Below, piece by piece: positions 1-17,618 of a DNA stretch of 17,618 bases (position 1 is its first letter; every line of letters begins with the position of its first letter). The position numbers and the translations under genes were made by a program. This stretch comes from a bacterium (lineage in GTDB: Bacteria > UBA9089 > CG2-30-40-21 > SBAY01). The stretch lies in contig JBFLYA010000070.1 in NCBI GenBank assembly GCA_040757115.1, forward strand, positions 1 through 17,618, written 5' to 3'. The notes under the pieces were generated by a model. The model made no database searches. It worked only from the letters and a program-made list of their open reading frames with translations, and had not been told where the DNA came from.

Positions 1-6
1 AGGAGG
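1..6 (+). promoter_or_regulatory. Shine-Dalgarno site deciding the start of the giant Rhs gene
   Basis: AGGAGG is a perfect Shine-Dalgarno core and ends 9 nt before ATG at 16. An in-frame TTG at 7 touches the site directly and is too close to be used, so the start is placed at 16. The promoter must lie upstream of the window. Confidence 0.8.
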
Positions 7-15
7 TTGGTTAAA

Positions 16-6000: not shown

Positions 6001-8754
6001 ATCTTTCAACGATTATTTACTTATGACCCATCTGGTAATCTCAAACAGGAATATTCAGACGCTACCGGGACGACAGCATTTGCCAATTATACCTATGATA
6101 ACCTGAATAGACTTACGGCTATAGAGTATACACCCGTAGATTATAAAGATATAACCTATGGATATGATAAAGCAGGAAATCGACTTAGCTCACAGGTTCA
6201 ATCTGAGCCAGTCCGTAACTATATCTATACCTCTAATCGCCTTAAATCAGATGGGGTTTATAGTTATGAGTATTATCCAAATGGTAATCTGAAGTCTAAA
6301 TCAGGTCAAGGAGAGGTTATTACTTATTACTATGATTATGAGAATAATCTGATTATGATTGGTAAAAATGGATTTTTGGAAGAGCGGTATGTATATGATG
6401 GGGATGGAAGACGGGTAGAGAAGATAAAAGGCGAGGATGTTACTATATACCATTATGACCTTTCAGATAGGGTATTATGTGAGATGAAGGGAAAGACAGA
6501 GGTTAAACAAACAGTTTCTTTAAAATATAATATTTCTAAGACCGATTATCAATGGATAGAAACTACACAGGCTACCGGTATAACCGGAGATGACCAGACG
6601 ATATTGTTTAATCTACCATTTAAGTTCAAGTTTTATGGCTATGAGTATGATAAGGTCTATGTCTGTAGTAATGGTTTTTTAAGTTTTACCTCAAATTCAA
6701 GGAGATATAGGGCAGATAACATCCCTAATTCAAGTGACCCAAATGCCTTAGTCGCACCATTCTGGCGGGATTTAGACCCAAGAAAAGGAGGCAGCATTAC
6801 TTACATAAGTAATAATGAGAGACTTGTCGTTAGCTGGGATAATGTCTCTCTTTATTCACCACGAGGTAATTACCAGACATTTCAGGTTATACTTAATAAA
6901 GATGGCACGATTACATTTCAGTATAAAGACTTGCAAGGAGTGGACGAGAGAGTTGTAGTTGGGATAGAAAATCAAGCAGGGAGTGAAGGAGAGGCGTATG
7001 ATTGGAATTCACTTGAAAATGGTCTGGCACTAAAGATTCAAGCACTAACAGGCAAAGAGGCTATTCCAAAAGAAGAGGTTAAATATGAGATGGCGGAGAT
7101 TAACTATGACTGGATAGAAACTGATACACCATCCGGGATTATCTATGATGATCAGAACGAACCTTTTAACTTACCATTTACCTTTAGTTACTATGGCAAG
7201 GATTACGATAAGGTAAATGTATGCAGTAATGGTTTCTTGAGTTTTACATCAAGAAGCACGGCTTATTGGTCATACTGGCTAAACATTCCTGACAATCAGG
7301 ACCCAAATGCCATGATAGCACCATTTTTTAGAGACCTGAATCCAGGAGTTGGTGGTAAGATTACATATAAGGATTTAGGTGATAAGTGGGTAATGAGTTG
7401 GGAAGATATACCGTTGTACTGGCCACGGGATAAAAAAGAGACATTTCAGGTAATACTGAATGTAGACGGTTCGATTATATTTCAGTATAAAGACCTACAA
7501 CATGTAGATTCTTATGTAAAAGCAGGGATAGAAGATGAGCGAGGAAAGGAAGGAATAGGAATTAGTCAGACATCACTTGCCAATGGCAAGGCTTATGAGA
7601 TAGTGCGGGTAGTCCAGAAGTTAGAATCACCACCTGCAGAGAAGGTAACTATTACCAGTAAGACCTCGTATGTCTATGGTAATGGGCAGTTAGTGGCGAA
7701 GCTACAGGAAGAACCAATTAACTCTGCTCCCAAGATTTATTACTACCATAATGACCACTTAGGTTCAGCAAGGGTGATTACGGATAAGGACGGCAAGGTA
7801 GTCGAGCAGTATTTCTATTATCCCTTTGGTGGTGGCGGACCTGCGGGCGGACCGACATTTACTGGCAAGGAGCTGGATGACAGCGGCCTATTCTACTTCG
7901 GCGCCAGATACTACGACCCGGCATTGGGGAGGTTTATCTCACCGGATCCAATACAGGTGCCAGGAGAGAATATCTATGTCTATTGTGCCAACAATCCATT
8001 GAAGTATGTAGACCCAAATGGGGAATGGTTCTGGGAAGTTGTACATTTCTTATGGAATGTTTACAGAGCTTATACAATTGGTAGGTCGATTTACAATGCA
8101 TATCAATACGGTGGCTGGGAATATGCATTAATGAGTGCTGGTAGTAGCTGGATGTTTAATCAATTCAGTGCGGGGATAAGTGCAGGAATAGATTTTGGTG
8201 ATTGGGGAGGAGCATTAGGAGATATACTTGAGTTAAGTGTAGAAAGGGCGATATACGGCGGAGTAGGAGCAGCGATGTATGGTGGAGATTTCTGGGAAGG
8301 GGCAAAAGCAGGCGCAATTAGTGGTGCTAAATTCGGTGCGATAGGATACCTCGTTGGTAATCCTGCTGACCCAACTGATTCATGCTATGGAGTTAATTCC
8401 TTTGTAGGAGGAGTAATAGGAAAAGAAGTAATAAAAAGAGCTCCGAGAGCATGGAATCTACTAAAAAATGTGATAAATAAGATTAAGGGGAAATTTGGGA
8501 AGGGGGAAGCAAAGTGGCAATTTGGGAAGGATAAGTCTTTAACTAAATGGCAAAATCAAATGAGAACCAGAGGTTGGACTGAGAAACAAATTACTGAAGC
8601 AATAGAAAGAGGAATTCGTGTGCCAGCAGTTAATAAAATAAATCCAGCAAATGGAGCAACTCGCTTTATTCATCCAGAAACTGGAAAATCAGTCGTTATT
8701 GATAATGTAACTAAAGAAATTATACATATTGGAGGGAAAGGTTTTGTCTATTAA
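16..8754 (+). CDS. Giant secreted Rhs/YD-repeat toxin with colicin E5-like RNase tip (2912 aa)
   Basis: This is the only cassette in the window with a complete head. Residues 1-50 form a long basic n-region, a hydrophobic segment (about 26-45) and a possible AYS signal cleavage site. Residues ~79-139 resemble the SpvB/Rhs N-terminal plug (GIKVDQGASWVGLGW). Several beta-rich, carbohydrate-binding-like stretches follow (about 200-300, 784-885, 991-1135, 1585-1650), with a proline-rich linker near 1361-1380. YD repeats are densest at ~1690-2150. Two tandem nidogen-like domains occupy about 2173-2344 and 2362-2530 (each with a CSNGFLSFTS strand). The Rhs core end follows: HNDHLGSARVITD (~2577), FTGKELDDSGLFYFGARYYD (~2615) and the PLKYVDPNG self-cleavage-type motif (Pro 2661, Asp 2666). 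The tip is a Gly/Ala-rich hydrophobic stretch and then an E5-like RNase. Inferred role: a shell enclosing a toxin delivered to competitors. The export route and target cell are not visible. Confidence 0.92.
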   Translation: MLKQNKSCKYKRERDYERKEVLSGGFLCFLSRLIVLIACFIFALSDKAYSDTYESSQNSPISAIAPLSFGSGPLPQASDFQTRIQGNGANLYTGDMNLPIPLFTVPGRGGLNYPINLSYQAGIKVDQGASWVGLGWDLIPEAITRNVIGYPDDYLKSEAELKISEKKFIKNIDGFLYTTDTTSYVIENDPNVYVAYDNNFYGTPRGTQLKSYSFSLQEPASIKINATCRHQYPTNYYWYELTIIFDGEKVLYYDAYLGPETHYYWKDFTVNVDYVAPGSHTVEWWMYARKEGDSNGAEMKDAKIEAVKHVCDTATPDVFSLSGKRLIMTGNPNNRKFHLQKTQGRTSSELQIDDAIKIEYGTDSATGVINFFIVTAVDGTKYIYNYPVYIKNQNSNSITKEGKNTQLGTTIYYKSKITTTTFNKPYPYAWLLTAILSPDYIDVNNNHLPDLEDSGNWIRFNYVKDATDYRFKYPYSGDYTDAPFGGNMAIESLRELFHLESIETPTHIAYFDVATDRQDVREYNGARHPVRLKEVRLYHRNTFDLNNPDAVIQSTYFDYDYSLCQGTPDSASGKLTLQNITQYGQGGKAKGEALPPTAFTYHPDNPNWDKYKWDCWGYYYENGSEGNHNLEGKSDGLKPWAWSVSKVILPTGGSIEWEYESDDYGIEGESKVKYGGGVRIRTVTTDDGLGNKFSTRYLYKTNDVDWSNSNSSGFASVEPPPFSTSTPSLYTLESPQEQSYVGYKKVTAIPGYESHTPTKTSHGYIVREFTGWQEKTVLYDGPSWKIENDFQWRCIKTLNIKLDHKAKLKISCYGIQTNGDYAYQVKIIVDGNEVYSQYVGGRTYNDVGRRFTTKEIEVSPGAHKIEFWGEADKYVAYLSNFSIFWDYYQDIEYKRGILKTTKFYDSLNNLTKSVEYSYKFDEQVKWSNDKENLTSGWAKLDKVETTIDGITTTTEYEYHPANGLISKKIERGNNEDRITQITYAFDPYPIPNGSFESWDGKSPIDWTSNGFIPSDEAPEGLRDAYEGVRSACSVLSFGNIIPTLLIGLICEIRDDSNNLLTTVYYREDDLTDNWREFTINLNQFKGKRGRIIFYGLNNNTLTSDLFDLDGNLKFWGKKFRGKIENKNYLAVFVDCCEITGSTQPYSNNMKTKHMLSQIYKKAIYDNNALVDLSITSWSDNFDSGQIYPKTSYKWLDKNKDGQFLTQYQELDDNPELICTSRFLKYDAYGNLLKEVDTNNGTTTYFYGDNSKPYKEPEADGTYNDINGGGYFAHAYLTAVQNALGHTATTFYNHDTTIGTVTDANGVSTIYLYDNFGRLKKEVKPGDTIESPTVEYDYYYALTKGLLGYVKHEKPTPYESSPPFPLSPSPPQEESQNANLNMITIWQKLEGTKTIQVRKHYDGLGRLLRTEAENTNNSSIESYSQKWEKDWSSCQLSNITTENENLVLAKFTGGYNYLSVYAETRHGSSYEYNLSLSDSSYKMDKWWRTNLQQHRSYDNGTAIDYVNNVLRIRFRCDGSKWTHKAYYGATYHVEGNKYYNQGTVISQPIYCGEVGSWGKFETEVEGHIFWRLPQGMCIMPPLGGWGPSITFYTQSSDNGIDWEDWQQVADGDDGIKSSVKRYIRWKASFLESEGKTAVLKNVIINWNIKVDNDIISDIEYNKLGLKEKVFKPYIEKEGRGGYTNYIYESNPLARISQVIYPDNSTVTTSYSNDGQNRIVTVKDENNQWTQTKFDKLGNMIEKQTDSIDGITFNNSTTYEYDILGNLLKVSDPKGNTTEFRYDTLGQLIKKNHPDTGITEYRYDNNGNLQFKRDALHTQEGLWVEYRYDLLNRLTQKGVLNYSGDNPYEAQNFESKVDYLYDGKHSYAPQGDNYPIGNLTRMIDGVGTTTYYYDVRARLVRQEQFLSGANYVTRYSYDSGDNIISITDPAGKVTNYSYNHLNQLTSLNINDIGSVTYTYTPESAVDNINFANGITTKYSYYPRGWIKIIDTQKASNLIFQRLFTYDPSGNLKQEYSDATGTTAFANYTYDNLNRLTAIEYTPVDYKDITYGYDKAGNRLSSQVQSEPVRNYIYTSNRLKSDGVYSYEYYPNGNLKSKSGQGEVITYYYDYENNLIMIGKNGFLEERYVYDGDGRRVEKIKGEDVTIYHYDLSDRVLCEMKGKTEVKQTVSLKYNISKTDYQWIETTQATGITGDDQTILFNLPFKFKFYGYEYDKVYVCSNGFLSFTSNSRRYRADNIPNSSDPNALVAPFWRDLDPRKGGSITYISNNERLVVSWDNVSLYSPRGNYQTFQVILNKDGTITFQYKDLQGVDERVVVGIENQAGSEGEAYDWNSLENGLALKIQALTGKEAIPKEEVKYEMAEINYDWIETDTPSGIIYDDQNEPFNLPFTFSYYGKDYDKVNVCSNGFLSFTSRSTAYWSYWLNIPDNQDPNAMIAPFFRDLNPGVGGKITYKDLGDKWVMSWEDIPLYWPRDKKETFQVILNVDGSIIFQYKDLQHVDSYVKAGIEDERGKEGIGISQTSLANGKAYEIVRVVQKLESPPAEKVTITSKTSYVYGNGQLVAKLQEEPINSAPKIYYYHNDHLGSARVITDKDGKVVEQYFYYPFGGGGPAGGPTFTGKELDDSGLFYFGARYYDPALGRFISPDPIQVPGENIYVYCANNPLKYVDPNGEWFWEVVHFLWNVYRAYTIGRSIYNAYQYGGWEYALMSAGSSWMFNQFSAGISAGIDFGDWGGALGDILELSVERAIYGGVGAAMYGGDFWEGAKAGAISGAKFGAIGYLVGNPADPTDSCYGVNSFVGGVIGKEVIKRAPRAWNLLKNVINKIKGKFGKGEAKWQFGKDKSLTKWQNQMRTRGWTEKQITEAIERGIRVPAVNKINPANGATRFIHPETGKSVVIDNVTKEIIHIGGKGFVY
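7315..8028 (+). repeat. Core-end homology block, copy 1 (in the expressed gene)
   Basis: This coding stretch runs from the middle of the second nidogen-like domain (IAPFFRDLNP) through the Rhs core end to DPNGEW. It is repeated at 9337, 11114, 13030 and 16492. The distance from the first shared Ala codon to the Asp codon of DPNG is exactly 693 bp in all five copies. The block provides long direct homology for in-frame exchange of toxin tips. Confidence 0.95.
8560..8751 (+). other. Colicin E5-like tRNA anticodon nuclease domain (toxin tip of the main Rhs protein)
   Basis: The last ~65 residues contain RGWTEKQI (Arg at residue 2852), an N-GATRF-HP block, and GKSVVIDNVTKEIIHIGG at the C-terminus. 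From memory of colicin E5 this matches its catalytic domain in order and spacing: RGWTEDDI, then an AT-V segment, then a KYVVVNDRTGEV strand. Colicin E5 cleaves queuosine-type tRNAs (Tyr, His, Asn, Asp) in the anticodon loop. That this tip has the same substrate is inference. It would act in the cytoplasm of the target cell. Confidence 0.8.
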
Positions 8755-8986
8755 GAATGAAAAAAAAGAAGAGATATATATCCCATTACTAAATGAGGGA
8801 GTTGATGTTTTTAGACCTACTTTGGGTATTGAAATAGAGAAAAATATTTTTAAAGTGCTTCCAATAGAAAAATATGATCCAGAAGATGAAAGATGGAAAT
8901 TTTTGCCTGGAAGTATTGTTAGATGTAAAAAAGAGATTCGGGAAGGAAAAGAGATATTAATTGCAACAGAACTCCAGAACTCCTGA
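8744..8986 (+). CDS. Probable immunity protein for the E5-like tip (80 aa)
   Basis: A small acidic soluble protein with no signal peptide or membrane segment, so cytoplasmic, as expected for protection against a tRNase. The frame is open from a TTG at 8729, but TTG at 8744 is the better start: GGAGGG (8731-8736) lies 7 nt upstream, inside the toxin's last codons. The gene then overlaps the toxin stop by 11 bp, which implies translational coupling. Visible pattern: IPLLNEGVDVFRP near the N-terminus and an ED-RWKF-PGSIVRC block in the middle. I recall small proteins of this VDV-RP / W-F-PG-V type from other bacteria but cannot name the family with certainty. The immunity role rests on position. 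A leader repeat begins 4 nt after its stop, so this toxin-immunity pair forms the end of the expressed module. Confidence 0.7.
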   Translation: MSIKNEKKEEIYIPLLNEGVDVFRPTLGIEIEKNIFKVLPIEKYDPEDERWKFLPGSIVRCKKEIREGKEILIATELQNS

Positions 8987-8990
8987 CAGG

Positions 8991-9058
8991 AGGATGAAGA
9001 TCGCATCTTGAATTGTGAATTGACATGTTACATAACTTATTGTTAATAAAAGGAATAG
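8991..9058 (+). repeat. Leader repeat copy A (long form), detached from a cassette
   Basis: It begins AGGATGAAG and continues TCGCATCTTGAATTGTGAATTG through to GGAATAG, matching the leaders before cassettes 2 and 4. It keeps the 20-bp segment missing from copies C and E. After GGAATAG it diverges from the other copies, and a second boxA-like motif appears at 9103. It starts just after the immunity gene stop, so the repeat marks a module boundary. Confidence 0.85.
9020..9048 (+). promoter_or_regulatory. Sigma-70-like promoter in leader copy A
   Basis: TTGACA (9020-9025), a 17-nt spacer and TTAATA (9043-9048); reading TAATAA instead gives an 18-nt spacer. The -35 is consensus and the -10 is partial. 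In such AT-rich DNA this is a candidate only, but it recurs at the same place in copies D and F. Confidence 0.45.
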
Positions 9059-9102
9059 AGTGGTGAAAATTGGGGTTAGGCTTCGAGCAGAATTAACTAA
9101 AT

Positions 9103-9115
9103 TGCTCTTTGAAAA
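9103..9115 (+). promoter_or_regulatory. boxA-like antitermination motif, extra copy
   Basis: TGCTCTTTGAAAA resembles the boxA of rRNA leaders and spacers (TGCTCTTTAACA in E. coli; TGTTCTTTGAAAACT in Bacillus-type operons), which binds NusB-S10. The sequence before it (AATTAACTAAAT) resembles the other leaders. It is followed by a short stretch reading ACACGGATTACACTGATTT, which looks like a dispersed-repeat fragment. Confidence 0.45.
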
Positions 9116-9142
9116 CTTAAGACACGGATTACACTGATTTAT

Positions 9143-9239
9143 GGTCGGGGATAGGGTCGGGGTCGGGGATAGGGTCGGGGTCGGGGATAGGGTCGCATCT
9201 TGAATTGGGGTCGGGGATAGGGTCGGTCGGGGATAGGGT
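9143..9239 (+). repeat. G-rich tandem array with quadruplex potential
   Basis: Irregular tandem copies of GGGGTCGGGGATAGGGTC are interrupted by an 18-nt fragment of the leader repeat (GGGTCGCATCTTGAATTG, 9190-9207). Runs of three to four G are separated by 2-3 nt (GGGG-ATA-GGG-TC-GGGG-TC-GGGG), which fits an intramolecular G-quadruplex on the + strand. It stands out from the AT-rich surroundings. No credible gene lies here: the reverse-strand open frame only encodes SPTPTL repeats produced by the array. Confidence 0.85.
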
Positions 9240-9336
9240 CGCATCTTGAATTGTGAATTGTTAATAAAGGAATAGTAAAATTTACTTTTTCTTTCCTAAA
9301 TTGCTCTTTGAAAATTAAGCATCCATGATAATAGAG
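9236..9336 (+). repeat. Leader repeat copy C (short form) before cassette 1
   Basis: It runs GGGTCGCATCTTGAATTG, TGAATTG, TTAATAAAGGAATAG, palindrome AGTAAAATTTACT (9274-9286), a pyrimidine tract, boxA-like TGCTCTTTGAAAA (9302-9314), then a TAA stop in the cassette frame and the junction to core sequence. It lacks the 20-bp segment holding the -35 and spacer of copies A, D and F. The segment is flanked by ATTG direct repeats, so the loss looks like slippage or recombination between them. Confidence 0.85.
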
Positions 9337-10800
9337 ATAGCACCATTTTTTAGAGACCTGAATCCAAGAGCTGGTGGTAAGATTACTTATAAGGATTTAG
9401 GTGATAAGTGGGTAATGAGTTGGGAAGATATACCGTTGTACTGGCCACGGGATAAAAAAGAGACATTTCAGGTAATACTGAATGTAGACGGTTCGATTAT
9501 ATTTCAGTATAAAGACTTGCAACGCGTAGATTCCTGGGTAAAAGCAGGGATAGAAGATGAGCGAGGAAAAGAGGGAATAGGAATTAGTCAGACATCACTT
9601 GCCAATGGCAAGGCATACGAGATAGTGCGGGTAGTCCAGAAGTTAGAATCACCACCGGCAGAGAAGGTAACTATCACCAGTAAGACCTCGTATGTCTATG
9701 GAAATGGGCAGTTAGTAGCAAAGTTACAGGAAGAGCCAATTGGCTCTTCACCGAAGGTGTATTACTACCATAATGACCACTTAGGCTCGGCGCGAGCAAT
9801 TACTGATAAAGATGGGAAGGTAGTCGAGCAGTATTTCTATTATCCCTTTGGTGGTGGCGGACCTGTCGGTGGACCGACATTTACTGGCAAGGAGCTGGAT
9901 GATAGCGGCCTCTTCTACTTCGGCGCCAGATACTATGACCCGGCATTGGGTAGATTCATTACCCCAGACCCAATTCAAGCCGCAGGCCAAAATCTGTATG
10001 TCTATTGTTACAACAATCCGCTTGGCTATGTTGATCCGAATGGTGAGTGGGCTTTTATTCCATTCCTGATTAGTGTATTTAAAGTCTACTCAATTGCCAG
10101 TACCATTTATAATATCTATCAAGGATATAAATATGGAGGTTTTGAAGGAGCCATACAGGCAGGAATGGTAAGTTTTGCCAGTTGGATGCTAACCAGTAGT
10201 ATTGACTTTGGCAATGAACTCTGGCAAGATATGTTGGAGGGAGCATTATCAGGGGCGATAAGTGGGGGCATAAGTGCCTTAGTCTACGGTGGAGATTTTG
10301 GTAAGGCTATGTATCAAGGCGCTGGCTGGGGTGCTGCTGGCGGTGCAATTGGTCATTGGGCTGAAAAAGTAATGGAATCTTATGAAAATGCACCAAAAGA
10401 TGAGGCAACATTGTATGCGTGGGATAAACCAGAACCAGGGAAGGGGAGGTGGCCACATGCTTCAGTAGAATTTGAAGGTGGATATGAAAGTTTATATCCT
10501 GGTAAGAAAATGAGTTTAGCTGATGATAAAGAAATTCACAAGGATAAGCCAGAAACATTATATAAGCCTCACAATAAGGATATGATAGTAAAAGGCCTTG
10601 ATAAGAATAAAATTAGTAAAATAGATAAAGCGTGGACTCCATACAGCTATAATTGCGCAGATCATGCTCAAGCAGTATTACAGGCTGGGGGCGCACAATT
10701 CTTGCCGAAATTGTTCATAAATACTCCTAATAGCCTTTACTATAGAGTCCAAATAAGAAGAGCATGGCGAACATTTTTATACGGAAAACAAGAATGGTAA
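9325..10800 (+). CDS. Orphan Rhs C-terminal cassette 1 with candidate papain-like tip (491 aa, probably silent)
   Basis: Residues 1-242 are the Rhs core end. Residues ~243-345 are a Gly/Ala-rich, hydrophobic linker (type B: AFIPFLIS...YGGDFGKAMYQGAG). The rest is the tip. It has WPHASVEFE (His at residue 378) and, later, YNCADHAQAVLQAGG (Cys at residue 444). A His-before-Cys order with an N-C-A-D helix start is typical of circularly permuted papain/NlpC-like folds, so a peptidase or amidase toxin is a reasonable guess but not proved. ATG at 9325 has no Shine-Dalgarno site and no signal peptide follows. The other cassettes have CTG at this position, so the ATG looks accidental. Most likely a silent tip donor for the main gene. 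Confidence 0.8.
   Translation: MIIEIAPFFRDLNPRAGGKITYKDLGDKWVMSWEDIPLYWPRDKKETFQVILNVDGSIIFQYKDLQRVDSWVKAGIEDERGKEGIGISQTSLANGKAYEIVRVVQKLESPPAEKVTITSKTSYVYGNGQLVAKLQEEPIGSSPKVYYYHNDHLGSARAITDKDGKVVEQYFYYPFGGGGPVGGPTFTGKELDDSGLFYFGARYYDPALGRFITPDPIQAAGQNLYVYCYNNPLGYVDPNGEWAFIPFLISVFKVYSIASTIYNIYQGYKYGGFEGAIQAGMVSFASWMLTSSIDFGNELWQDMLEGALSGAISGGISALVYGGDFGKAMYQGAGWGAAGGAIGHWAEKVMESYENAPKDEATLYAWDKPEPGKGRWPHASVEFEGGYESLYPGKKMSLADDKEIHKDKPETLYKPHNKDMIVKGLDKNKISKIDKAWTPYSYNCADHAQAVLQAGGAQFLPKLFINTPNSLYYRVQIRRAWRTFLYGKQEW
9337..10050 (+). repeat. Core-end homology block, copy 2 (cassette 1)
   Basis: Collinear with 7315-8028, with no length change between the shared Ala codon (9340) and the DPNG Asp codon (10033). 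It carries distinct substitutions such as QRVDSWV and GSSPKVYYY. Confidence 0.95.
10390..10797 (+). other. Candidate permuted papain-like toxin domain, variant 1
   Basis: It begins near NAPKDEATLYAW, with the proposed catalytic His codon at 10456 and Cys codon at 10654. It ends with a basic segment, QIRRAWRTFLYG. The end and start are shared with the cassette 3 tip while the middle differs. The family name is not known to me; catalysis is inferred from the H/C pattern only. Confidence 0.45.
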
Positions 10801-10827
10801 TAAAGTTCTATTAGTCAGAGGAATAAT

Positions 10828-11013
10828 ATGCAAAAACATTTTTTTAACATCTTTTGGATTTTTTTAATTTTTACTATTGGTTGTACACATAGTTATAAAT
10901 CAAACTCTGATCTTAATAAGGTTTATCTACTTGAAGAGATAGGACTTGGAACTTACTTTTATGGTGATTCATATAACCAAGGGCGAGAATGGGGGTCGCA
11001 TCTTGAATTGTGA
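10828..11013 (+). pseudogene. 5' fragment of a lipoprotein gene, probably the cassette 1 immunity gene (truncated)
   Basis: It starts at ATG 10828 with AGAGGA (10817-10822) 5 nt upstream, 27 bp after the cassette 1 stop. The N-terminus is a clear lipoprotein signal: MQKHFFNIFWIFLIFTIGC, with Cys at residue 19 as the lipidation site. After about 50 residues the frame runs into the leader repeat (from 10993), and the last codons (GSHLEL) are repeat sequence. So the gene was cut when cassette 2 was joined here. A lipoprotein would be outside the cytoplasm, which suits protection against a cell-wall or periplasm-acting tip. The immunity role is inferred from position. Confidence 0.65.
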
Positions 11014-11014
11014 A

Positions 11015-11043
11015 TTGACATTTTACATAACTTATTGTTAATA
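11015..11043 (+). promoter_or_regulatory. Sigma-70-like promoter in leader copy D
   Basis: TTGACA (11015-11020), 17-nt spacer, TTAATA (11038-11043). The palindrome AGTAAAATTTACT begins 7 nt downstream, near where transcription would start, so it could be an operator. It would transcribe cassette 2 and its immunity gene. Confidence 0.45.
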
Positions 11044-11078
11044 AAGGAATAGTAAAATTTACTTTTTCTTCTCTTAAT

Positions 11079-11091
11079 TGCTCTTTGAAAA
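11079..11091 (+). promoter_or_regulatory. boxA-like motif before cassette 2
   Basis: TGCTCTTTGAAAA, identical to the motifs at 9302-9314 and 16457-16469. It lies downstream of the promoter candidate, where a boxA would have to be transcribed to work. Possible role: keeping RNA polymerase going through an untranslated cassette. Confidence 0.45.
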
Positions 11092-11113
11092 TTAAACATC
11101 TCTGATAATAGAA

Positions 11114-11827
11114 ATTGCACCATTTTTTAGAGACCTGAATCCATCTAAAGGCGGTAAGATTACATATAAGGATTTAGGTGATAAGTGGGTAATGAGTTGG
11201 GAAGATGTACCGTTGTACTGGCCAAGGGATAAAAAAGAGACATTTCAGGTAATACTGAATGTAGACGGTTCGATTATATTTCAGTATAAAGACCTACAAC
11301 ATGTAGATTCTTATGTAAAAGCAGGGATAGAAGATGAGCGAGGAAAAGAGGGAATAGGAATTAGTCAGACATCACTTGCCAATGGCAAGGCATACGAGAT
11401 AGTGCGGGTAGTCCAGAAGTTAGAATCGCCACCGGCAGAGAAGGTAACTATCACCAGTAAGACCTCGTATGCCTATGGCAATGGGCAATTAGTGGCGAAG
11501 CTACAGGAAGAACCAATTAACTCTGCTCCCAAGATTTATTACTACCATAATGACCACTTAGGCTCAGCAAGGGTAATTAGTGACAAGGATGGCAAGGTAG
11601 TCGAGCAATATTTCTATTATCCCTTTGGTGGTGGTGGACCGGTTGGTGGACCTACTTTTACTGGCAAGGAGCTGGATGACAGCGGCCTGTTCTACTTCGG
11701 CGCCAGATACTATGACCCTGCATTAGGGAGATTTATAACTCCCGATTCAGTTCAAATCCCAGCAGATAATCTCTATGTCTACTGTGCTAATAATCCGCTC
11801 ACAAATATAGACCCGAATGGAGAATTC
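11114..11827 (+). repeat. Core-end homology block, copy 3 (cassette 2)
   Basis: Collinear with 7315-8028 with the same 693-bp spacing (11117 to 11810). Protein differences are few: NPSKGGK, SVQIPADNLYVYC and NPLTNIDPNGEF near the end. Confidence 0.95.
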
Positions 11828-12577
11828 TGGCAATTTATATGGGCAGCATGGAAGTTTTATACTGCGGTTAAAACCCTTTATAATGTCTATGAGGCATATC
11901 AATACGGTGGATGGGATGCAGCTTTAATGAGTGCTGGTAGTAGCTGGATGTTTAATCAATTCAGTGCTGGGATAAGTGCAGGGATAAATTTTGGAGACTG
12001 GGGTGGTCCATTAGGAGATATATTTGAATTAGGAGTAGAAGGGGCGATAACTGGTGGCATAAGCTCATTAATGTATGGTGGTGATTTCTGGGAAGGGGCA
12101 AGAACAGGAGCTATTTCTGGAGTTGGCTCTGGAATAGCAAATGCTTTATTACCTATTTTAGGTGCAGTACCTACTGCAGAGAAAGAGACAATTATTAGCG
12201 ATCCAGTTGATCCAACAGATTTCTTGGGAGCTGGAAAGATAGTTGTTGGAGGAATAAAAACAGTTCTTGTTGGTGGGGGTAAAGTAATAGGCAAAGGTAT
12301 AGGTAAAATCGGTGGAAGAGTTATAGGAAAAGGAGCGGCAAAAGAAGGTGTAACTAAAGCTCAAAGTCCAGTTTGGAAAGAATTTAAAACTTTTAGGGGA
12401 GGAATTAAAACCTCTGGTAAAGGAAGGAATAAAGAATACTATAAGTGGGACCACACTCATAACCATATTGAGGTTTATGATAGGTACGGTAATCATAAAG
12501 GTGTAATGGATCCAATTACTGGTGTGATAGATAGATCAAAACAAGTCCCGGGAAGAACGATTAAAGATGAATTATAA
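11192..12577 (+). CDS. Orphan Rhs C-terminal cassette 2 with colicin E3-like 16S rRNase tip (461 aa from first ATG, probably silent)
   Basis: The homologous frame is open from 11096, just after a TAA in the leader. ATG 11192 is only the first methionine and sits inside the nidogen-like domain without a Shine-Dalgarno site. The protein is core end, then a type A Gly-rich linker close to that of the main protein (MSAGSSWMFNQFSAGISAG, YGGDFWEGA), a glycine-rich basic stretch (VVGGGKVIGKGIGKIGG), and a C-terminal RNase domain. No signal peptide or head is present, so it should not be secreted as it stands. It is best read as a silent donor of an E3-type tip. The cognate immunity candidate follows after 39 bp. 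Confidence 0.85.
   Translation: MSWEDVPLYWPRDKKETFQVILNVDGSIIFQYKDLQHVDSYVKAGIEDERGKEGIGISQTSLANGKAYEIVRVVQKLESPPAEKVTITSKTSYAYGNGQLVAKLQEEPINSAPKIYYYHNDHLGSARVISDKDGKVVEQYFYYPFGGGGPVGGPTFTGKELDDSGLFYFGARYYDPALGRFITPDSVQIPADNLYVYCANNPLTNIDPNGEFWQFIWAAWKFYTAVKTLYNVYEAYQYGGWDAALMSAGSSWMFNQFSAGISAGINFGDWGGPLGDIFELGVEGAITGGISSLMYGGDFWEGARTGAISGVGSGIANALLPILGAVPTAEKETIISDPVDPTDFLGAGKIVVGGIKTVLVGGGKVIGKGIGKIGGRVIGKGAAKEGVTKAQSPVWKEFKTFRGGIKTSGKGRNKEYYKWDHTHNHIEVYDRYGNHKGVMDPITGVIDRSKQVPGRTIKDEL
12380..12574 (+). other. Colicin E3-like 16S rRNase domain
   Basis: The motif YYKWDHTHNHIEVY aligns with the colicin E3 active site (YEWDSQHGELEGY). Asp 420, His 423 and Glu 427 of the cassette protein match E3 Asp510, His513 and Glu517, with the same +3 and +7 spacing. 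HKGVMDPITG matches HLGSFDPKTG, and Arg 455 in PGRTI takes the place of Arg545. All four catalytic residues are present. E3 cuts 16S rRNA at the decoding site. The same reaction is expected but not shown here. Confidence 0.87.
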
Positions 12578-12616
12578 AGTGATTGAATGGTATAATAAAG
12601 TAAAAAGGGGGAAAGA

Positions 12617-12853
12617 ATGTTTGAACATTGTTGTAAGATGATGAATTTTCATATTAATCATGAAGACAAGATAATTCAGTATTGGTCTAAATTCAGAGAA
12701 TATGTAATCAAAATTCCTGAGGTACTTGGAGGAGGAGGTTTAGTAATGAATTATTGTCCGTGGTGTGGGAAAAAGCTGCCGAAGTCACTACGGGATAAGA
12801 TATTTGAGGAAAATCAAAAAAAGGGATTAGATCTCTTTGGTTGTCCTGAATAA
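12617..12853 (+). CDS. DUF6980-like cysteine-rich protein, probable immunity to the E3-like tip (78 aa)
   Basis: Starts at ATG 12617 with AGGGGG (12606-12611) 5 nt upstream. It has an N-terminal HCC-M motif, a central CPWCGKKLPKSLRD zinc-ribbon-type motif and a further Cys (FGCPE) at the end, so it probably binds a metal. From memory the CPWCGxKLPxSxRD signature is that of the DUF6980 family. No signal peptide: cytoplasmic, as needed against an rRNase. It is shorter than the family members I recall. Its own good ribosome site suggests it is made even though the cassette before it is not. The immunity role is inferred from its place directly after the toxin tip. Confidence 0.72.
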   Translation: MFEHCCKMMNFHINHEDKIIQYWSKFREYVIKIPEVLGGGGLVMNYCPWCGKKLPKSLRDKIFEENQKKGLDLFGCPE

Positions 12854-12888
12854 ATAGAATGGTAATTAGGGTCAGCCGTGAATGTGGA

Positions 12889-12935
12889 AGGCGTAGAATA
12901 GGGCGTAGAATAGGGTCGGGCGTAGAATAGGGTCG
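12889..12935 (+). repeat. Short GGCGTAGAATAGGG tandem array
   Basis: Three imperfect copies of GGCGTAGAATAGG(GTC) stand directly before leader copy E, in the position held by the GGGGTCGGGGATAGGGTC array before copy C. G-runs are shorter, so quadruplex potential is weak. The two arrays share the AT-AGGGTCG end and may be related. Confidence 0.75.
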
Positions 12936-13029
12936 CATCTTGAATTGTGAATTGTTAATAAAGGAATAGTAAAATTTACTTTTTTTTCCTTAATTGTTCT
13001 TTGAAAATTAAGCATCCCTGATAATAGAG
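12930..13029 (+). repeat. Leader repeat copy E (short form) before cassette 3
   Basis: Same 20-bp loss as copy C. The palindrome AGTAAAATTTACT is at 12968-12980. The boxA-like motif is TGTTCTTTGAAAA (12995-13007), the form seen in Bacillus-type rRNA operons. TAA at 13009-13011 closes the cassette frame upstream. Confidence 0.85.
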
Positions 13030-13743
13030 ATAGCACCATTTTTTAGAGACCTGAATCCAGGAGATGGTGGTAAGATTACATATAAGGATTTAGGTGATAA
13101 ATGGGTAATGAGTTGGGAAGATGTACCGTTGTACTGGCCAAGTGATAAAAAAGAGACATTTCAGGTAATACTGAATGTAGACGGTTCGATTATATTTCAG
13201 TATAAAGACCTACAACATGTAGATTCTTATGTAAAAGCAGGGATAGAAGATGAGCGAGGAAAAGAGGGAATAGGAATTAGTCAGACATCACTTGCCAATG
13301 GCAAGGCATACGAGATAGTGCGGGTAGTCCAGAAGTTAGAATCGCCACCGGTACAGAAAGTAACAATCACCAGCAAGACTTCATACATCCATGCCAATGG
13401 GCAATTGGTAGCAAAACTGCATGAAGAACCTCTCGGCGCATCTGCTAAAATTTACTACTACCACAACGACCACTTAGGTTCACCACGGGCTATTACGGAT
13501 AAAGATGGTAAGGTGGTAGAGAATTATTTTTACTACCCATTTGGCTCTGGAGGTCCTGTTGGCGGACCGACATTTACTGGCAAGGAGCTGGATGATAGCG
13601 GCCTGTTCTACTTTGGCGCCAGATACTATGACCCGGCACTGGGGAGATTCATTACCCCAGACCCGATTCAAGCCGCAGGCCAAAATCTGTATGTCTATTG
13701 CTACAACAATCCGCTTGGCTATGTTGATCCGAATGGTGAGTGG
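13030..13743 (+). repeat. Core-end homology block, copy 4 (cassette 3)
   Basis: Same length and frame as the other copies (13033 to 13726 is 693 bp), but about 13352-13560 is visibly more diverged in bases and residues (KLHEEPLGASAKIYYY, NYFYYPFGSGG), while both flanks are nearly identical to the other copies. Confidence 0.95.
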
Positions 13744-14538
13744 GCTTTTATTCCATTCCTGATTAGTGCCTTTAAAGTCTATTCAGTTGCAAGTGCAATC
13801 TATAATGTCTACCAGGGATATAAATATGGAGGTTTTGAAGGGGCATTACAGGCAGGAATGGTAAGTGTAGCCTGTTGGGCATTTACCAGTGGGATTGACT
13901 TTGGAAATGAACTCTGGCAAGATATGTTGGAGGGAGCATTATCAGGGGCGATAAGTGGTGGCATAAGTGCCGCGGTATATGGTGGAGATTTTGGCAAGGC
14001 TATGTACCAGGGTGCAGCCTGGGGTGCTGCTGGCGGTGCAATTGGTCATTGGGCTGAGAAAATGTGGGGAAAATACCAAAATGCACCAAAAGATGAGGCA
14101 ACATTGTATGCGTGGGAATCTGAAGGTGATTGGCCTCATGCCTCAGTAGATATTGAAGGGAAACAAGGACAATACCCAGGTTATCAAAGTGCTTATCCAT
14201 TCCCTGAAGGTAAAAATCGTCCTTTTGATAATAGTGAGAAAGGAGTTGTGTTTAAACTTTATAAAGAGGATGTAAATAGCCATCTTCCAAACCCGAAAGA
14301 AATAGTAATAAAAGGTGTAAATAAATCAGCAATGCACAGCTTTTTCCCAAAGGGAGGACCTGTATGGAAAGCATATACCTACAATTGTGCTGATTACGCC
14401 CAGGCAGTGTTACAAGCAGGAGGAGCACGATTCTTACCAAAACTATTTATAAATTCACCAAGAAGTCTGTATTATAGAGCCCAAATAAGAAGAGCATGGC
14501 GAACATTTTTATACGGTCCACAAGAATGGCAAAAATGA
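13108..14538 (+). CDS. Orphan Rhs C-terminal cassette 3 with second papain-like candidate tip (476 aa from first ATG, probably silent)
   Basis: The frame is open from 13012; ATG 13108 is an internal methionine without a ribosome site. Order: core end, type B hydrophobic linker (AFIPFLISAFKVYS to WAEKMWGKYQ), then the tip. The tip has WPHASVDIE (His at residue 344) and YNCADYAQAVLQAGG (Cys at residue 427), followed by the same basic end as cassette 1 (QIRRAWRTFLYG). The section between His and Cys differs strongly from cassette 1 and is longer, which points to a different substrate or a different immunity partner. Two secreted proteins follow downstream. Reading as a permuted papain-like peptidase/amidase is inference from motif order. 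Confidence 0.8.
   Translation: MSWEDVPLYWPSDKKETFQVILNVDGSIIFQYKDLQHVDSYVKAGIEDERGKEGIGISQTSLANGKAYEIVRVVQKLESPPVQKVTITSKTSYIHANGQLVAKLHEEPLGASAKIYYYHNDHLGSPRAITDKDGKVVENYFYYPFGSGGPVGGPTFTGKELDDSGLFYFGARYYDPALGRFITPDPIQAAGQNLYVYCYNNPLGYVDPNGEWAFIPFLISAFKVYSVASAIYNVYQGYKYGGFEGALQAGMVSVACWAFTSGIDFGNELWQDMLEGALSGAISGGISAAVYGGDFGKAMYQGAAWGAAGGAIGHWAEKMWGKYQNAPKDEATLYAWESEGDWPHASVDIEGKQGQYPGYQSAYPFPEGKNRPFDNSEKGVVFKLYKEDVNSHLPNPKEIVIKGVNKSAMHSFFPKGGPVWKAYTYNCADYAQAVLQAGGARFLPKLFINSPRSLYYRAQIRRAWRTFLYGPQEWQK
14080..14535 (+). other. Candidate permuted papain-like toxin domain, variant 2
   Basis: Proposed catalytic His codon at 14137 and Cys codon at 14386. The start (NAPKDEATLYAW) and end (RRAWRTFLYGPQEW) match variant 1, and the centre is replaced (YPFPEGKNRPF, LPNPKEIVIKG). 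Family unknown to me. Confidence 0.45.
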
Positions 14539-14580
14539 AAGTAAGCCCCGTGTGTTTTACATACAAAGGGTTTACTTTTT
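14538..14580 (+). terminator. Hairpin with T-run after cassette 3
   Basis: AAAGTAAGCCC (14538-14548) pairs with GGGTTTACTTT (14568-14578) through 11 pairs including one G-U. Inside, GTGTG and CATAC can extend the helix around a TTTTA loop. The 3' arm ends in TTTTT (14576-14580). This fits an intrinsic terminator, though the T-run partly belongs to the stem. It separates the cassette from the next gene. The perfect GGAGG that follows (14581-14585) is too far from the next ATG. Confidence 0.6.
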
Positions 14581-14604
14581 GGAGGTAAGAGAAAAGTTAA
14601 GGTA

Positions 14605-15702
14605 ATGAAGAAAGAGATGTTAATACCTGTATTAATATTAACACTAATCATATCAATACTTATTCCAAAACAAACTTATGGAGAAGATGTTAAAGTGTAT
14701 AATAAAATTCTTCTTATCACTTCTCAAGGAAAGTTATTAATAGATTTAATAACTGGTAAGATAGATACTTCTACAGAGCAAGAATCTCTTTTTCTCATAG
14801 ATCCTTCTTGGGACATTTTGAAGGAAAGAGGTATGAATATAGATAGTTTAAGAAAGGAAGGGTGTCTTTTTCACTCCAATCTTTCCTATCATATTTTAAA
14901 AGATATAAATTATATAACCCATAACTATCCTGATGATAATAAAATAGTTGTTAGATTATTAGATAAAAATAATAATATGTTATATAAAAAAGAGCTATTT
15001 ACCAATTTATCAAAAGATGTTAACCATGTAATATATCTTTCTTTTGATAGCAATTTGCTTTTTTTATTACGGGAGGATTGGAAACAGCGTAAAAGTTGTA
15101 TAGATATTTTTCTATTAAAAGAGGGAAAGAAAATAGATACTATTTATAGAAATTTTCATATTTATTATCGTTATAAACCAAGGTTTTCAAAAAATGGTAA
15201 ACTTTGGATATATTACGATCCTAAAGAAAAAAAGGTGTTATTGTATGACTTAGAAAAAAAAGAAGCTTGTCATTTGCCAAATTGTAACGGGGGGATTCCG
15301 ATTAATCATAATGAATCTATTATTTACAAGGAAATCTACAAAAGGCGAAATATACTTGATATACTTTACAGAGATAAGCCTTTTGAATATAAATTTTTTA
15401 AATATAATAGAATAACCAATCAAAGAGAAAATTTGAATATAGATAATGTGAAAGGATTTATAGTAGAAATGGGAATTTCTCCAGATGGAAAGTATCTTGC
15501 AATTATTCATAGAATGGAGTGGAATAGAGAATATAGAAGGAGATATTATAAGATGATTCCAAGAGTCATCATTAAGGTTTATGATTTTGAGGATAAAAAG
15601 GTTGTAGTTGACTTTGATGGTTTAGAATTTTTTGAGAATGGTTTAGGAATAGGTGATTTTCATATTAAATGGATAGAAGAAGAAAAAGATGATAGTTTAT
15701 AG
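14605..15702 (+). CDS. Secreted propeller-like protein of unknown function (365 aa), candidate immunity factor
   Basis: ATG 14605 opens a good Sec signal peptide (MKKEMLIPVLILTLIISILI, likely cleavage near TYG/E at ~26). ATG 14617 is possible but would lose the basic start. No lipobox or later membrane span is seen. The mature part is beta-rich with WD40/TolB-like blade fragments (FSKNGKLWIYYDPKEKKVLLYDL; ISPDGKYLAIIHR). It is AT-rich and lysine-rich, unlike the more GC-balanced Rhs core ends, as expected for tip-linked accessory genes. It comes after the cassette 3 tip and shares its end with the next frame. An extracytoplasmic immunity role against the cassette 3 toxin is possible from position alone; I do not recognise the family. 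Confidence 0.7.
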   Translation: MKKEMLIPVLILTLIISILIPKQTYGEDVKVYNKILLITSQGKLLIDLITGKIDTSTEQESLFLIDPSWDILKERGMNIDSLRKEGCLFHSNLSYHILKDINYITHNYPDDNKIVVRLLDKNNNMLYKKELFTNLSKDVNHVIYLSFDSNLLFLLREDWKQRKSCIDIFLLKEGKKIDTIYRNFHIYYRYKPRFSKNGKLWIYYDPKEKKVLLYDLEKKEACHLPNCNGGIPINHNESIIYKEIYKRRNILDILYRDKPFEYKFFKYNRITNQRENLNIDNVKGFIVEMGISPDGKYLAIIHRMEWNREYRRRYYKMIPRVIIKVYDFEDKKVVVDFDGLEFFENGLGIGDFHIKWIEEEKDDSL

Positions 15703-15772
15703 AACTTACTTAAATTACAAGACTTATGACAAAAAGTTACTAATAAAAAGGAGAAGATGTAAAAAAGAGAAA

Positions 15773-16354
15773 ATGAAGAAGGTAATATTGTTAACATTGG
15801 TTTTGATTATATTTTTATCAACTAATAATGTATATGCAATAGAGGAAGAATTGAAATCTGGTGTAAGTTTTACTATAGGATATACTCATGTTAAAGAAAT
15901 CTGGGAAAAAAAGTCTCTTCCTCCTCTCCCTCCTCCTCCTTTTTCATTTGAAGATACCTACTATCTAAAATTTAGTTCTGATAAAGGTACTTCTATCAAA
16001 ATAGGATTCAAGCAATTCCTTAAATTACCTATTCCATTAATGGGAGAGGTAGAATATCTTTCTCTTCATACTATAGAGTCCTTTAATTATTTATGTTCTG
16101 TTAATTATTTATGTTCTGTTGGTATAGCCCACTTCTTGAAGAAGGGTACTGTTTATATTGGTATTGGCTATTATACTCCAGATATTGGCTCAGGTAAGAT
16201 GGGTTGTCATGTGCTTATAGAAGGAAAGAAGGCTCTGACTAAAAATCTGAATCTGATTCTGGAAGGAAGATTGAGGAAAGTGGATAGTTATTCTTCCGAT
16301 AATAGTAAAATTGATCTTTCTGGATATACCATTTCAATAGGGATTGGAGAGTAG
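15773..16354 (+). CDS. Small outer-membrane beta-barrel-like protein (193 aa)
   Basis: The frame is open from ATG 15689, which overlaps the previous gene, but ATG 15773 directly starts a Sec signal peptide (MKKVILLTLVLIIFLSTNNVYA) with AAGAGA just upstream, so it is preferred. The mature protein alternates polar and apolar residues in short strands (GVSFTIGYTH, YYLKFSS, TSIKIGFKQF, VYIGIGYYTP, LNLILEGRLRKV) and ends with YTISIGIGE. This pattern, and the size, resembles eight-stranded OmpW/OmpA-type barrels. It has a proline run (PPLPPPPF) and an exact 18-bp tandem duplication giving NYLCSV twice. Function unknown. It is probably co-transcribed with the gene before it. Confidence 0.65.
   Translation: MKKVILLTLVLIIFLSTNNVYAIEEELKSGVSFTIGYTHVKEIWEKKSLPPLPPPPFSFEDTYYLKFSSDKGTSIKIGFKQFLKLPIPLMGEVEYLSLHTIESFNYLCSVNYLCSVGIAHFLKKGTVYIGIGYYTPDIGSGKMGCHVLIEGKKALTKNLNLILEGRLRKVDSYSSDNSKIDLSGYTISIGIGE
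16085..16120 (+). repeat. Exact 18-bp in-frame tandem duplication
   Basis: AATTATTTATGTTCTGTT occurs twice without a gap (16085-16102 and 16103-16120), adding NYLCSV a second time to the barrel-like protein. It looks recent because the copies are identical. Confidence 0.95.
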
Positions 16355-16391
16355 ATTAGCGCAGGATGAAGGTCGCATCTTGAATTGTGAA

Positions 16392-16420
16392 TTGATATTT
16401 TACATAACTTATTGTTAATA
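16392..16420 (+). promoter_or_regulatory. Sigma-70-like promoter in leader copy F
   Basis: TTGATA (16392-16397), 17-nt spacer, TTAATA (16415-16420). One base weaker than copies A and D at the -35. Confidence 0.4.
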
Positions 16421-16456
16421 AAAGGAATAGTAAAATTTAGTTTTTCTTTACTAAAT

Positions 16457-16469
16457 TGCTCTTTGAAAA
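16457..16469 (+). promoter_or_regulatory. boxA-like motif before cassette 4
   Basis: TGCTCTTTGAAAA, in the same place relative to the core junction as in the other three cassettes. Confidence 0.45.
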
Positions 16470-16473
16470 TTAA

Positions 16474-17618
16474 ACATCCCTGATAATAGAGATTGCACCA
16501 TTTTTTAGAGACCTGAATCCATCTAAAGGCGGTAAGATTACATATAAGGATTTAAGTGATAAGTGGGTAATGAGTTGGGAAGATGTACCGTTGTACTGGC
16601 CAGGTGATAAAAAAGAGACATTTCAGGTAATACTGAATGTAGACGGTTCAATAATATTTCAGTATAAAGACTTGCAACGCGTAGATTCCTGGGTAAAGGC
16701 AGGGATAGAAGATGAGCGAGGAAAAGAGGGAATAGGAATTAGTCAGACATCACTTGCCAATGGCAAGGCTTATGAGATAGTGCGGGTAGTCCAGAAGTTA
16801 GAATCACCACCGGCAGAGAAGGTAACTATCACCAGTAAGACCTCGTATGCCTATGGCAATGGGCAGTTAGTGGCAAAGCTACAGGAAGAACCAATTAACT
16901 CTGCTCCCAAAATTTATTACTACCATAACGACCACTTAGGTTCAGCAAGGGTGATTACGGATAAAGATGGCAAGGTAGTTGAGCAGTATTTCTATTATCC
17001 CTTTGGTGGTGGCGGACCTGTAGGTGGGCCGACATTTACCGGCAAGGAGCTGGATGACAGCGGCCTGTTCTACTTCGGCGCTAGATACTATGACCCGGCA
17101 TTGGGGAGATTCATTACCCCAGACCCGATTCAAGCCGCAGGCCAAAATCTGTATGTCTATTGCTACAACAATCCGCTTGGCTATGTTGACCGAATGGTGA
17201 GTGGGCTTTTATTCCATTCCTGATTAGTGTATTTAAAGTCTACTCAATTGCCAGTACCATTTATAATATTTATCAAGGATATGAACATGGAGGTTTTGAA
17301 GGTGCATTACAGGCAGGAATGGTAAGTTTTGCCAGTTGGATGGTAACCAGTAGTATTGACTTTGGAAATGAACTCTGGCAAGATATGTTGGAGGGAGCAT
17401 TATCAGGGGCGATAAGTGGGGGCATAAGTGCAGCGGTATATGGGGGAGACTTTGGTAAGGCAATGTATCAAGGTGCTGGTTGGGGTGCTGTTGGCGGTGC
17501 AATTGGTCATTGGGCTGAAAAAGTAATGGAATCTTATGAAAATGCACCAAAAGATGAGGCAACATTGTATGCGTGGGATAAACCAGAACCAGGGAAGGGG
17601 AGGTGGCCACATGCTTCA
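16474..17618 (+). pseudogene. Orphan Rhs cassette 4, frameshifted and cut by the window end
   Basis: The frame is open from 16474 (first ATG 16570) and reads the core end up to LGYVD, then stops at 17221-17223. At 17188-17192 the sequence is GACCG where cassettes 1 and 3 have GATCCG: one T is lost. From 17190 the next frame restores NGEWAFIPFLIS, the type B linker and the start of a papain-like tip nearly identical to cassette 1 (WDKPEPGKGRWPHAS at the window edge). The break lies inside the DPNG cleavage motif. As a donor it could still be used if the crossover lies downstream of the lesion, which leaves little homology with the main gene. A sequencing error is possible. Confidence 0.85.
16492..17204 (+). 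repeat. Core-end homology block, copy 5 (cassette 4)
   Basis: Collinear with the others over 693 bp (16495 to 17188). A single base is missing inside the DPNG codons right after that. The sequence is a mosaic: QRVDSWV as in cassette 1 but EEPINSAPKIYYY as in the main gene and cassette 2. Confidence 0.95.

What the first reader, a model, noticed from the sequence alone, without database searches (positions are those of the whole stretch)
7315..17618. Silent library of four headless Rhs tips behind one expressed Rhs gene
Seen: one full-length secreted Rhs gene followed in tandem by four core-end fragments with different or variant tips. Each lacks a head, a signal peptide and a believable ribosome site. 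Known: displaced or orphan rhs/cdiA tips occur in enterobacteria and can recombine with the main gene. Inference: this is a tip-switching locus with an unusually full set (E5-like, E3-like, two papain-like variants).
Basis: partly seen in the sequence, partly recalled or inferred. Interest (0 to 1): 0.8.

Follow-up and report, generated by a model that had tools for sequence, protein, structure and literature searches.

The report
Antiterminator-marked library of silent toxin tips
A bacterium from an uncultivated group carries one complete toxin gene of the Rhs family followed by a row of headless spare toxin tips, and each spare starts with the same short RNA signal (boxA) that the cell uses at its ribosomal-RNA and CRISPR genes, which probably lets transcription pass through the unread toxin to the protective immunity gene behind it.

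Summary
A 2.9-kilocodon rhs gene with a signal peptide and an E5-type tip is followed by four headless core-end/tip modules; more lie on other contigs of the same genome.

Tip switching is supported historically: the same tips sit on a head in the sister species but headless here; in the sister genome one head contig forks into two core-end/tip contigs; core ends are mosaic (PHI p=0.0005); headless cores stay under purifying selection (dN/dS about 0.1-0.2).

A matrix trained only on rRNA and CRISPR boxA sites of the phylum finds 17 sites at 15 bits or more on 18 toxin contigs (null 0), all at headless modules. The core motif occurs 25 times (null 0.45, reversed control 0) in three unrelated toxin families of two species. 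No full-length gene has one; E. coli K-12 rhs loci have none.

Best reading: boxA lets RNA polymerase cross about 1.5 kb of untranslated toxin without Rho termination, so immunity genes stay expressed while tips remain recombination donors. boxA match and placement are shown; antitermination is inferred.

The parts
16..8754 (+). Full-length secreted rhs gene: signal-peptide-like N-terminus, head, RHS repeats, NIDO-like repeats (about 6547-7500), core end, E5-type tip
   Evidence: RHS repeat and Colicin_E5 Pfam hits; SD AGGAGG at 1-6
7315..8034 (+). Core end of the full gene, the segment repeated in all headless modules
8491..8754 (+). Colicin E5-type toxin domain on the head
   Evidence: PF12106 6e-6; colicin E5 best PDB match, weak
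8744..8986 (+). Small ORF in immunity position (TTG start, strong SD -9.8 kcal)
   Evidence: immunity role inferred from position
8991..9139 (+). Leftover leader with its own boxA (9103-9117) and no core behind it; scar of a lost or displaced module
9140..9336 (+). Leader of module 1: G-rich repeats, dispersed repeat, boxA at 9302-9316
9337..10800 (+). Headless module 1: core end plus NCAD-motif tip; followed by a 61-aa lipoprotein start (10828-11013) cut short by the next leader
10986..11113 (+). Leader of module 2, boxA 11079-11093
11114..12577 (+). Headless module 2: core end plus colicin E3-type (Cytotoxic) tip
   Evidence: PF09000 4.6e-7; D-x2-H-x3-E aligned with colicin E3
12617..12853 (+). 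DUF6980 ORF in immunity position behind the E3 tip, strong SD (-10.9 kcal)
12890..13029 (+). Leader of module 3, boxA 12995-13009
13030..14538 (+). Headless module 3: core end plus NCAD-motif tip
14605..16354 (+). Two ORFs with signal-peptide-like starts (14605-15702, 15689-16354), candidate immunity or accessory genes
   Evidence: no Pfam match
16363..16491 (+). Leader of module 4, boxA 16457-16471
16492..17618 (+). Headless module 4: core end plus a tip related to module 1, frameshifted at about 17194, cut by the contig end

Best explanation
The locus is a polymorphic-toxin array: one translated, exported Rhs toxin with its immunity gene, followed on the same strand by headless toxin-tip/immunity modules. 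The tips are not meant to be translated where they lie (no start site at the edge, in-frame stop), but the genes behind them are. Translation stops about 65-145 nt before each module's boxA and about 1.5 kb of toxin message then follows untranslated, which would normally invite Rho-dependent termination. The boxA at the 5' edge of each module most likely loads NusB/S10, as on this genome's rRNA and CRISPR transcripts, so that RNA polymerase continues to the immunity gene. The cell thereby keeps a bank of immunities and a donor library; homologous recombination through the roughly 700-bp core end moves tips onto the head. Shown: anatomy, boxA match and placement, purifying selection, past recombination, tips in different positions in two species. 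Inferred: transcription, Nus binding, Rho protection, immunity function, present-day switching.
For: boxA: exact 14-mer 9 of 10 sites in this genome at headless modules, reversed control 0; the same motif before 23S rRNA in a relative and at a CRISPR leader, and a close variant before 16S here; rRNA/CRISPR-trained matrix gives 17 hits at 15 bits or more, null 0, none in full-length genes; census of 15 sites per genome, control 0; 25 core motifs on 20 toxin contigs, null 0.45, in three unrelated families. Position: 67-143 nt after the previous gene, about 1.5 kb before the next ORF, in-frame TAA before the core. No intrinsic terminator between modules. Strong SD at the E5 and E3 immunity ORFs and none at module edges. 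Switching. Selection. Precedents: orphan modules co-transcribed, toxin not made, immunity made (PMC3150448); boxA relieves polarity in CRISPR arrays (PMC7862264); rhs main-orphan fusion in Salmonella (PMC3967940).
Against: No expression data. Family-A leaders are homologous, so independent boxA gains are few. Some headless modules lack boxA at the edge (C210 at 3257, C78 at 8337, C112 at 7663 and 6111). Absent from E. coli K-12 rhs loci and from the next genus (G003 C78). boxA-like sites also occur before a promoter-bearing intergenic region (C12, C16, C236), so not every site need be an antiterminator. ORFs 14605-16354 and the truncated lipoprotein of module 1 are not proven immunity genes. 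NusB and Rho were not searched for.
Confidence: 0.6

Rival explanations
1. Pure recombination library: modules are silent donors only, and the leader with boxA is just shared sequence carried along when one ancestral headless module was amplified.
For: Family-A leaders are homologous and share a derived 14-bp gap at the core edge. Recombination and tip exchange are supported without any role for boxA.
Against: boxA recurs at headless modules of two other toxin families with different junctions and flanks, and two G001 leaders that are unrelated upstream still keep boxA. The motif equals the genome's rRNA/CRISPR boxA and is rare elsewhere.
Confidence: 0.2
2. The headless modules are translated in place from the internal ATG (or a near-cognate start) and act inside the cell as toxin-antitoxin pairs, as proposed for the Salmonella orphan rhs; boxA tunes this expression, possibly by repressing translation as at suhB.
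For: Purifying selection on headless cores; an internal ATG with a moderate SD in modules 1-3; Salmonella precedent (PMC7043789); boxA at suhB and at a ParE toxin gene (PMC5725501).
Against: That ATG is internal to the core, is equally present in the full gene, and its SD is weak in module 4. Module 4 is frameshifted. In-frame stop at the edge. Selection is explained as well by cycling through the head.
Confidence: 0.12
3. Assembly artefact: repeats were mis-joined by a short-read assembler, so order, frameshift and fork are not real.
For: Contigs end in the repeats and contig ends overlap by exactly the k-mer length. Short-read metagenome-type assembly.
Against: Within C70 the copies differ by 5-15% and each carries a distinct tip, downstream region and leader. 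The same anatomy recurs in a second species' assembly and in unrelated toxin families.
Confidence: 0.05

Closest known systems
Orphan cdiA-CT/cdiI and rhs-CT/rhsI modules of enterobacteria (Poole 2011, PMC3150448; Koskiniemi 2014, PMC3967940)
   Same: Full toxin gene followed by headless tip/immunity modules without start signals, homologous to the main gene upstream of the tip, able to recombine onto it; orphan immunity made from a long co-transcript in E. coli EC93.
   Different: No boxA reported there (none in four E. coli K-12 rhs loci). Here modules share a leader, keep a longer core (about 700 bp), and occur in three toxin families of one genus.
Neisseria maf islands with silent mafB-CT cassettes (PMC4287609)
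   Same: Main toxin gene plus cassettes without initiation codon and immunity genes.
   Different: Different toxin family; no boxA leader described.
boxA-led CRISPR arrays and rRNA operons (PMC7862264 citing Stringer 2020; PMC4807359)
   Same: Same boxA motif near the start of a long untranslated transcript; found in these very genomes at 16S, 23S of a relative and CRISPR leaders.
   Different: Here the untranslated RNA is a toxin pseudo-reading-frame followed by protein-coding genes with their own ribosome sites.
Salmonella orphan rhs as toxin-antitoxin module (PMC7043789)
   Same: Orphan rhs tip next to a full rhs gene.
   Different: There internal promoters and a CTG start make toxin; here neither is evident and boxA is present.

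Membership tests
Rhs polymorphic toxin locus with orphan modules | RHS repeats and core end with the PxxxxDPxG motif before a variable tip | tested here: met
   RHS_repeat PF05593 9e-30; NNPLKYVDPNGEW in the translation
Rhs polymorphic toxin locus with orphan modules | Variable C-terminal toxin domains | tested here: met
   Colicin_E5, Cytotoxic/E3, DNase/HNH-type and unassigned tips on one core family
Rhs polymorphic toxin locus with orphan modules | Headless modules lacking start and export signals | tested here: met
Rhs polymorphic toxin locus with orphan modules | Cognate immunity gene after each tip | tested here: inconclusive
   ORFs in place; only DUF6980 is a named family; module 1's ORF is truncated, module 4's is beyond the contig
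Rhs polymorphic toxin locus with orphan modules | Tip exchange between main gene and modules | tested here: inconclusive
   Different positions in two species, assembly fork and PHI show past exchange, not present switching
boxA antitermination element | Sequence match to the organism's own rRNA boxA | tested here: met
boxA antitermination element | Placed upstream of a long untranslated stretch on the transcribed strand | tested here: met
   Placement and strand; transcription itself not tested
boxA antitermination element | Binds NusB/S10 and blocks Rho termination | not testable with these tools
   Needs RNA or protein experiments
pilE/pilS-type programmed gene conversion | Unidirectional copying from silent donors with donors unchanged | tested here: inconclusive
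   Mosaic core ends do not give direction; G-rich tracts only at some modules

The most novel reading that the evidence does not exclude
Silent toxin-tip modules are a third natural class of boxA client after rRNA and CRISPR arrays: bacteria use Nus-dependent antitermination to read through deliberately untranslated toxin cassettes so that a bank of immunity genes stays expressed, a solution adopted across several unrelated toxin families in this genus.
Probability: 0.55. Interest if true: 0.85.

Novelty: new variant of a known kind. Interest (0 to 1): 0.72.

Why it matters
Arrays of orphan toxin/immunity modules are widespread, and in E. coli EC93 they were shown to be transcribed with immunity made and toxin not made, but how polymerase gets through long untranslated toxin fragments without Rho stopping it is not addressed in the papers found here. 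A boxA at each module gives a concrete, cheap-to-test answer, extends boxA/Nus control beyond rRNA and CRISPR, and offers a sequence marker for finding silent toxin libraries in genomes.

Tried and rejected
Dispersed repeat GGTCGCATCTTGAATTGTGAATTG as the functional element: it occurs at sites unrelated to toxins and in other genera, so it is background. A promoter in each leader: TTGACA-like hexamers exist in some leaders but that stretch is missing in modules 1 and 3, and promoter-like matches are at chance level. G-rich tracts as a pilE-like G4 trigger: strong only at module 1 and C347, not conserved. boxA as general to rhs orphans: not in four E. coli K-12 rhs loci, nor in the three distant Rhs loci fetched, nor in G003 C78. 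Papain fold of the NCAD tip: no sequence match, model pLDDT 36, dropped. The eLife 2020 boxA/CRISPR paper is not held and is cited through PMC7862264.
Full report
WHAT IS THERE. The window is one entire contig (C70) of a 4.3-Mb, 462-contig genome. It holds one open rhs gene (1-8754) that starts with a perfect Shine-Dalgarno site and an ATG at 16 and ends in a colicin E5-type tip. Four headless copies of the last part of its core follow, starting at 9337, 11114, 13030 and 16492. Each runs into its own linker and tip: an NCAD-motif tip, an E3-type tip, another NCAD-motif tip, and a tip related to the first that is frameshifted and cut by the contig end. Behind the first three stand ORFs in the immunity position, among them DUF6980 behind E3.

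THE ARRAY IS LARGER THAN THE WINDOW. The same core end occurs on contigs C112, C210 and C347 of the same genome. C112 joins the start of C70 by an exact 127-bp overlap. It adds an HNH/colicin-DNase-type tip of this family and several modules of a second Rhs family. Three further contigs carry other full-length rhs genes (C31, C15, C78), two of which share the window's signal-peptide region.

TIPS MOVE. In the sister species (G001) the E3 tip is joined to the head side of the core, while here it is headless (84% amino-acid identity). The tip on C347 here is on a head there (77%). In G001 the head contig C390 ends in a 127-mer that begins both C312 and C370; these diverge at base 128 and carry different tips. 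This is what a head with alternative tips looks like in an assembly graph, but two gene copies or two strains would look the same. PHI tests on the core ends reject clonal descent in every set tried (p=0.0005, the floor of 2000 permutations). Headless-headless comparisons within the window keep dN/dS at about 0.09-0.15 with dS 0.3-0.6, so these fragments have spent most of their history under coding constraint, as expected if they cycle through an expressed position.

THE NEW ELEMENT. All four modules begin with a leader that the full gene lacks. Its conserved inner end, AATTGYTCTTTGAAAAYTAARCATCC, was suspected to be a boxA antiterminator and tested in steps. (1) The exact 14-mer TTGYTCTTTGAAAA occurs 10 times in this genome, 9 of them at headless rhs modules; in G001, 5 of 7; reversed control 0. 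(2) Other sites include the spacer about 100 nt before 23S rRNA in a family member and the leader of a CRISPR array in G001. The genome's own 16S leader has ATGTTCCTTGAAAACTGAATA. (3) A matrix trained only on rRNA and CRISPR boxA sites and scanned over 18 toxin contigs gave 17 hits at 15 bits or more, against 0 in a Markov null, all at headless edges or leftover leaders. (4) A genome-wide census with a broader pattern gave 15 sites in each species and 0 in the reversed control: 9 of 15 in each lie at headless toxin modules; others are at 16S and at CRISPR leaders (one here, two in G001, one of them an array of more than 50 repeats behind cas1-cas2), three at an intergenic site before a membrane-protein gene, one unassigned, and a few within coding sequence. 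(5) The core motif GYTCTTTGAMA occurs 25 times on 20 toxin contigs (null 0.45, reversed 0), always on the toxin strand. The hits cover three unrelated toxin families: this one; the second Rhs family, where boxA abuts the core at other positions; and a third family on G001 C83, where three of three internal headless modules follow a lipoprotein gene and begin with boxA. No boxA precedes the full-length genes on C70, C31, C15 or C40. One hit (C112 6026) is in a coding frame and taken as chance.

HOW IT MOST LIKELY WORKS. In the window boxA lies 67-143 nt after the previous gene ends (for module 1 the nearest is the leftover-leader copy) and about 1.5 kb before the next ORF start. In families A and B the boxA tail supplies an in-frame stop just before the core. 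No start with a Shine-Dalgarno site exists at the edge, while the immunity ORFs behind E5 and E3 have strong ones (-9.8 and -10.9 kcal). No intrinsic terminator separates modules. Long untranslated message is the classic substrate for Rho (established knowledge), and boxA/Nus is held to relieve it in rRNA and CRISPR arrays (PMC4807359 abstract; PMC7862264). In E. [quoted passage not shown] The simplest joint reading is that boxA carries polymerase through each untranslated tip to its immunity gene. The tip itself is a donor for recombination, as shown for Salmonella rhs (PMC3967940). Transcription, Nus binding and Rho protection are inferred, not shown.

WHAT IT WORKS LIKE AND WHAT IT IS. It is a member of the Rhs polymorphic-toxin systems with orphan modules (features met in the membership table). 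It works like a boxA-led CRISPR or rRNA transcript in its leader, by sequence and placement only. No paper found here links boxA to orphan Rhs or CDI modules; the nearest is a boxA before a ParE-type toxin gene (PMC5725501).

LIMITS. Family-A leaders are related, so the number of independent boxA acquisitions is small (at least three contexts: A, B, C). Several headless modules have no boxA at the edge. The trait is absent from four E. coli K-12 rhs loci and from rhs fragments of the next genus. NusB and Rho were not searched for. The papain label of the NCAD tips is unverified. The organism's name is not known from these tools.

Noticed in passing
window 8999, 9237, 10994, 12931, 16371; also C30, C257, C125, C177, C282, C47 and genomes G002, G011: Dispersed intergenic repeat GGTCGCATCTTGAATTGTGAATTG marks the outer edge of most leaders and cuts short the gene before module 2 (lipoprotein ending GREWGSHLEL); also found far from toxins and in other genera of the phylum.
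   Followed up: partly
window 9140-9240; L039 2440-2530: G-rich repeats (GGGTCGGGGATAGGGTCG) able to form G-quadruplexes just before some modules.
   Followed up: no
G000 C31 19473-19611, C15 31496-31646, window 1-139: Three full-length rhs genes share nearly the same first 40 codons (98% and 77%) but different heads, suggesting exchange of the signal-peptide end.
   Followed up: no
L162 189-416: Group I intron match inside the 23S rRNA gene of the sister genome G001.
   Followed up: no
L202 2188-5559 (G001 C10): CRISPR array of more than 50 repeats behind cas1-cas2, with boxA about 100 nt before the first repeat, in line with reports of boxA at CRISPR arrays.
   Followed up: partly
G000 C12:4643, C16:16946; G001 C236:6072: boxA-like TGYTCTTTGACAATTTAAKA shortly upstream of a TTGACA/TATAAT-like promoter of membrane-protein genes, conserved in both species; role unclear.
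   Followed up: no
L205 599-9000 (G001 C40): A second-family rhs gene with boxA-led headless modules lies directly downstream of the ribosomal-protein operon that includes S10 (NusE).
   Followed up: no
L038 2112-3671 and L066 188-1786: A lamin-tail-like surface protein gene sits between the DNase-type headless module and the rhs head in this genome (C112) and next to the same module in the sister species.
   Followed up: no
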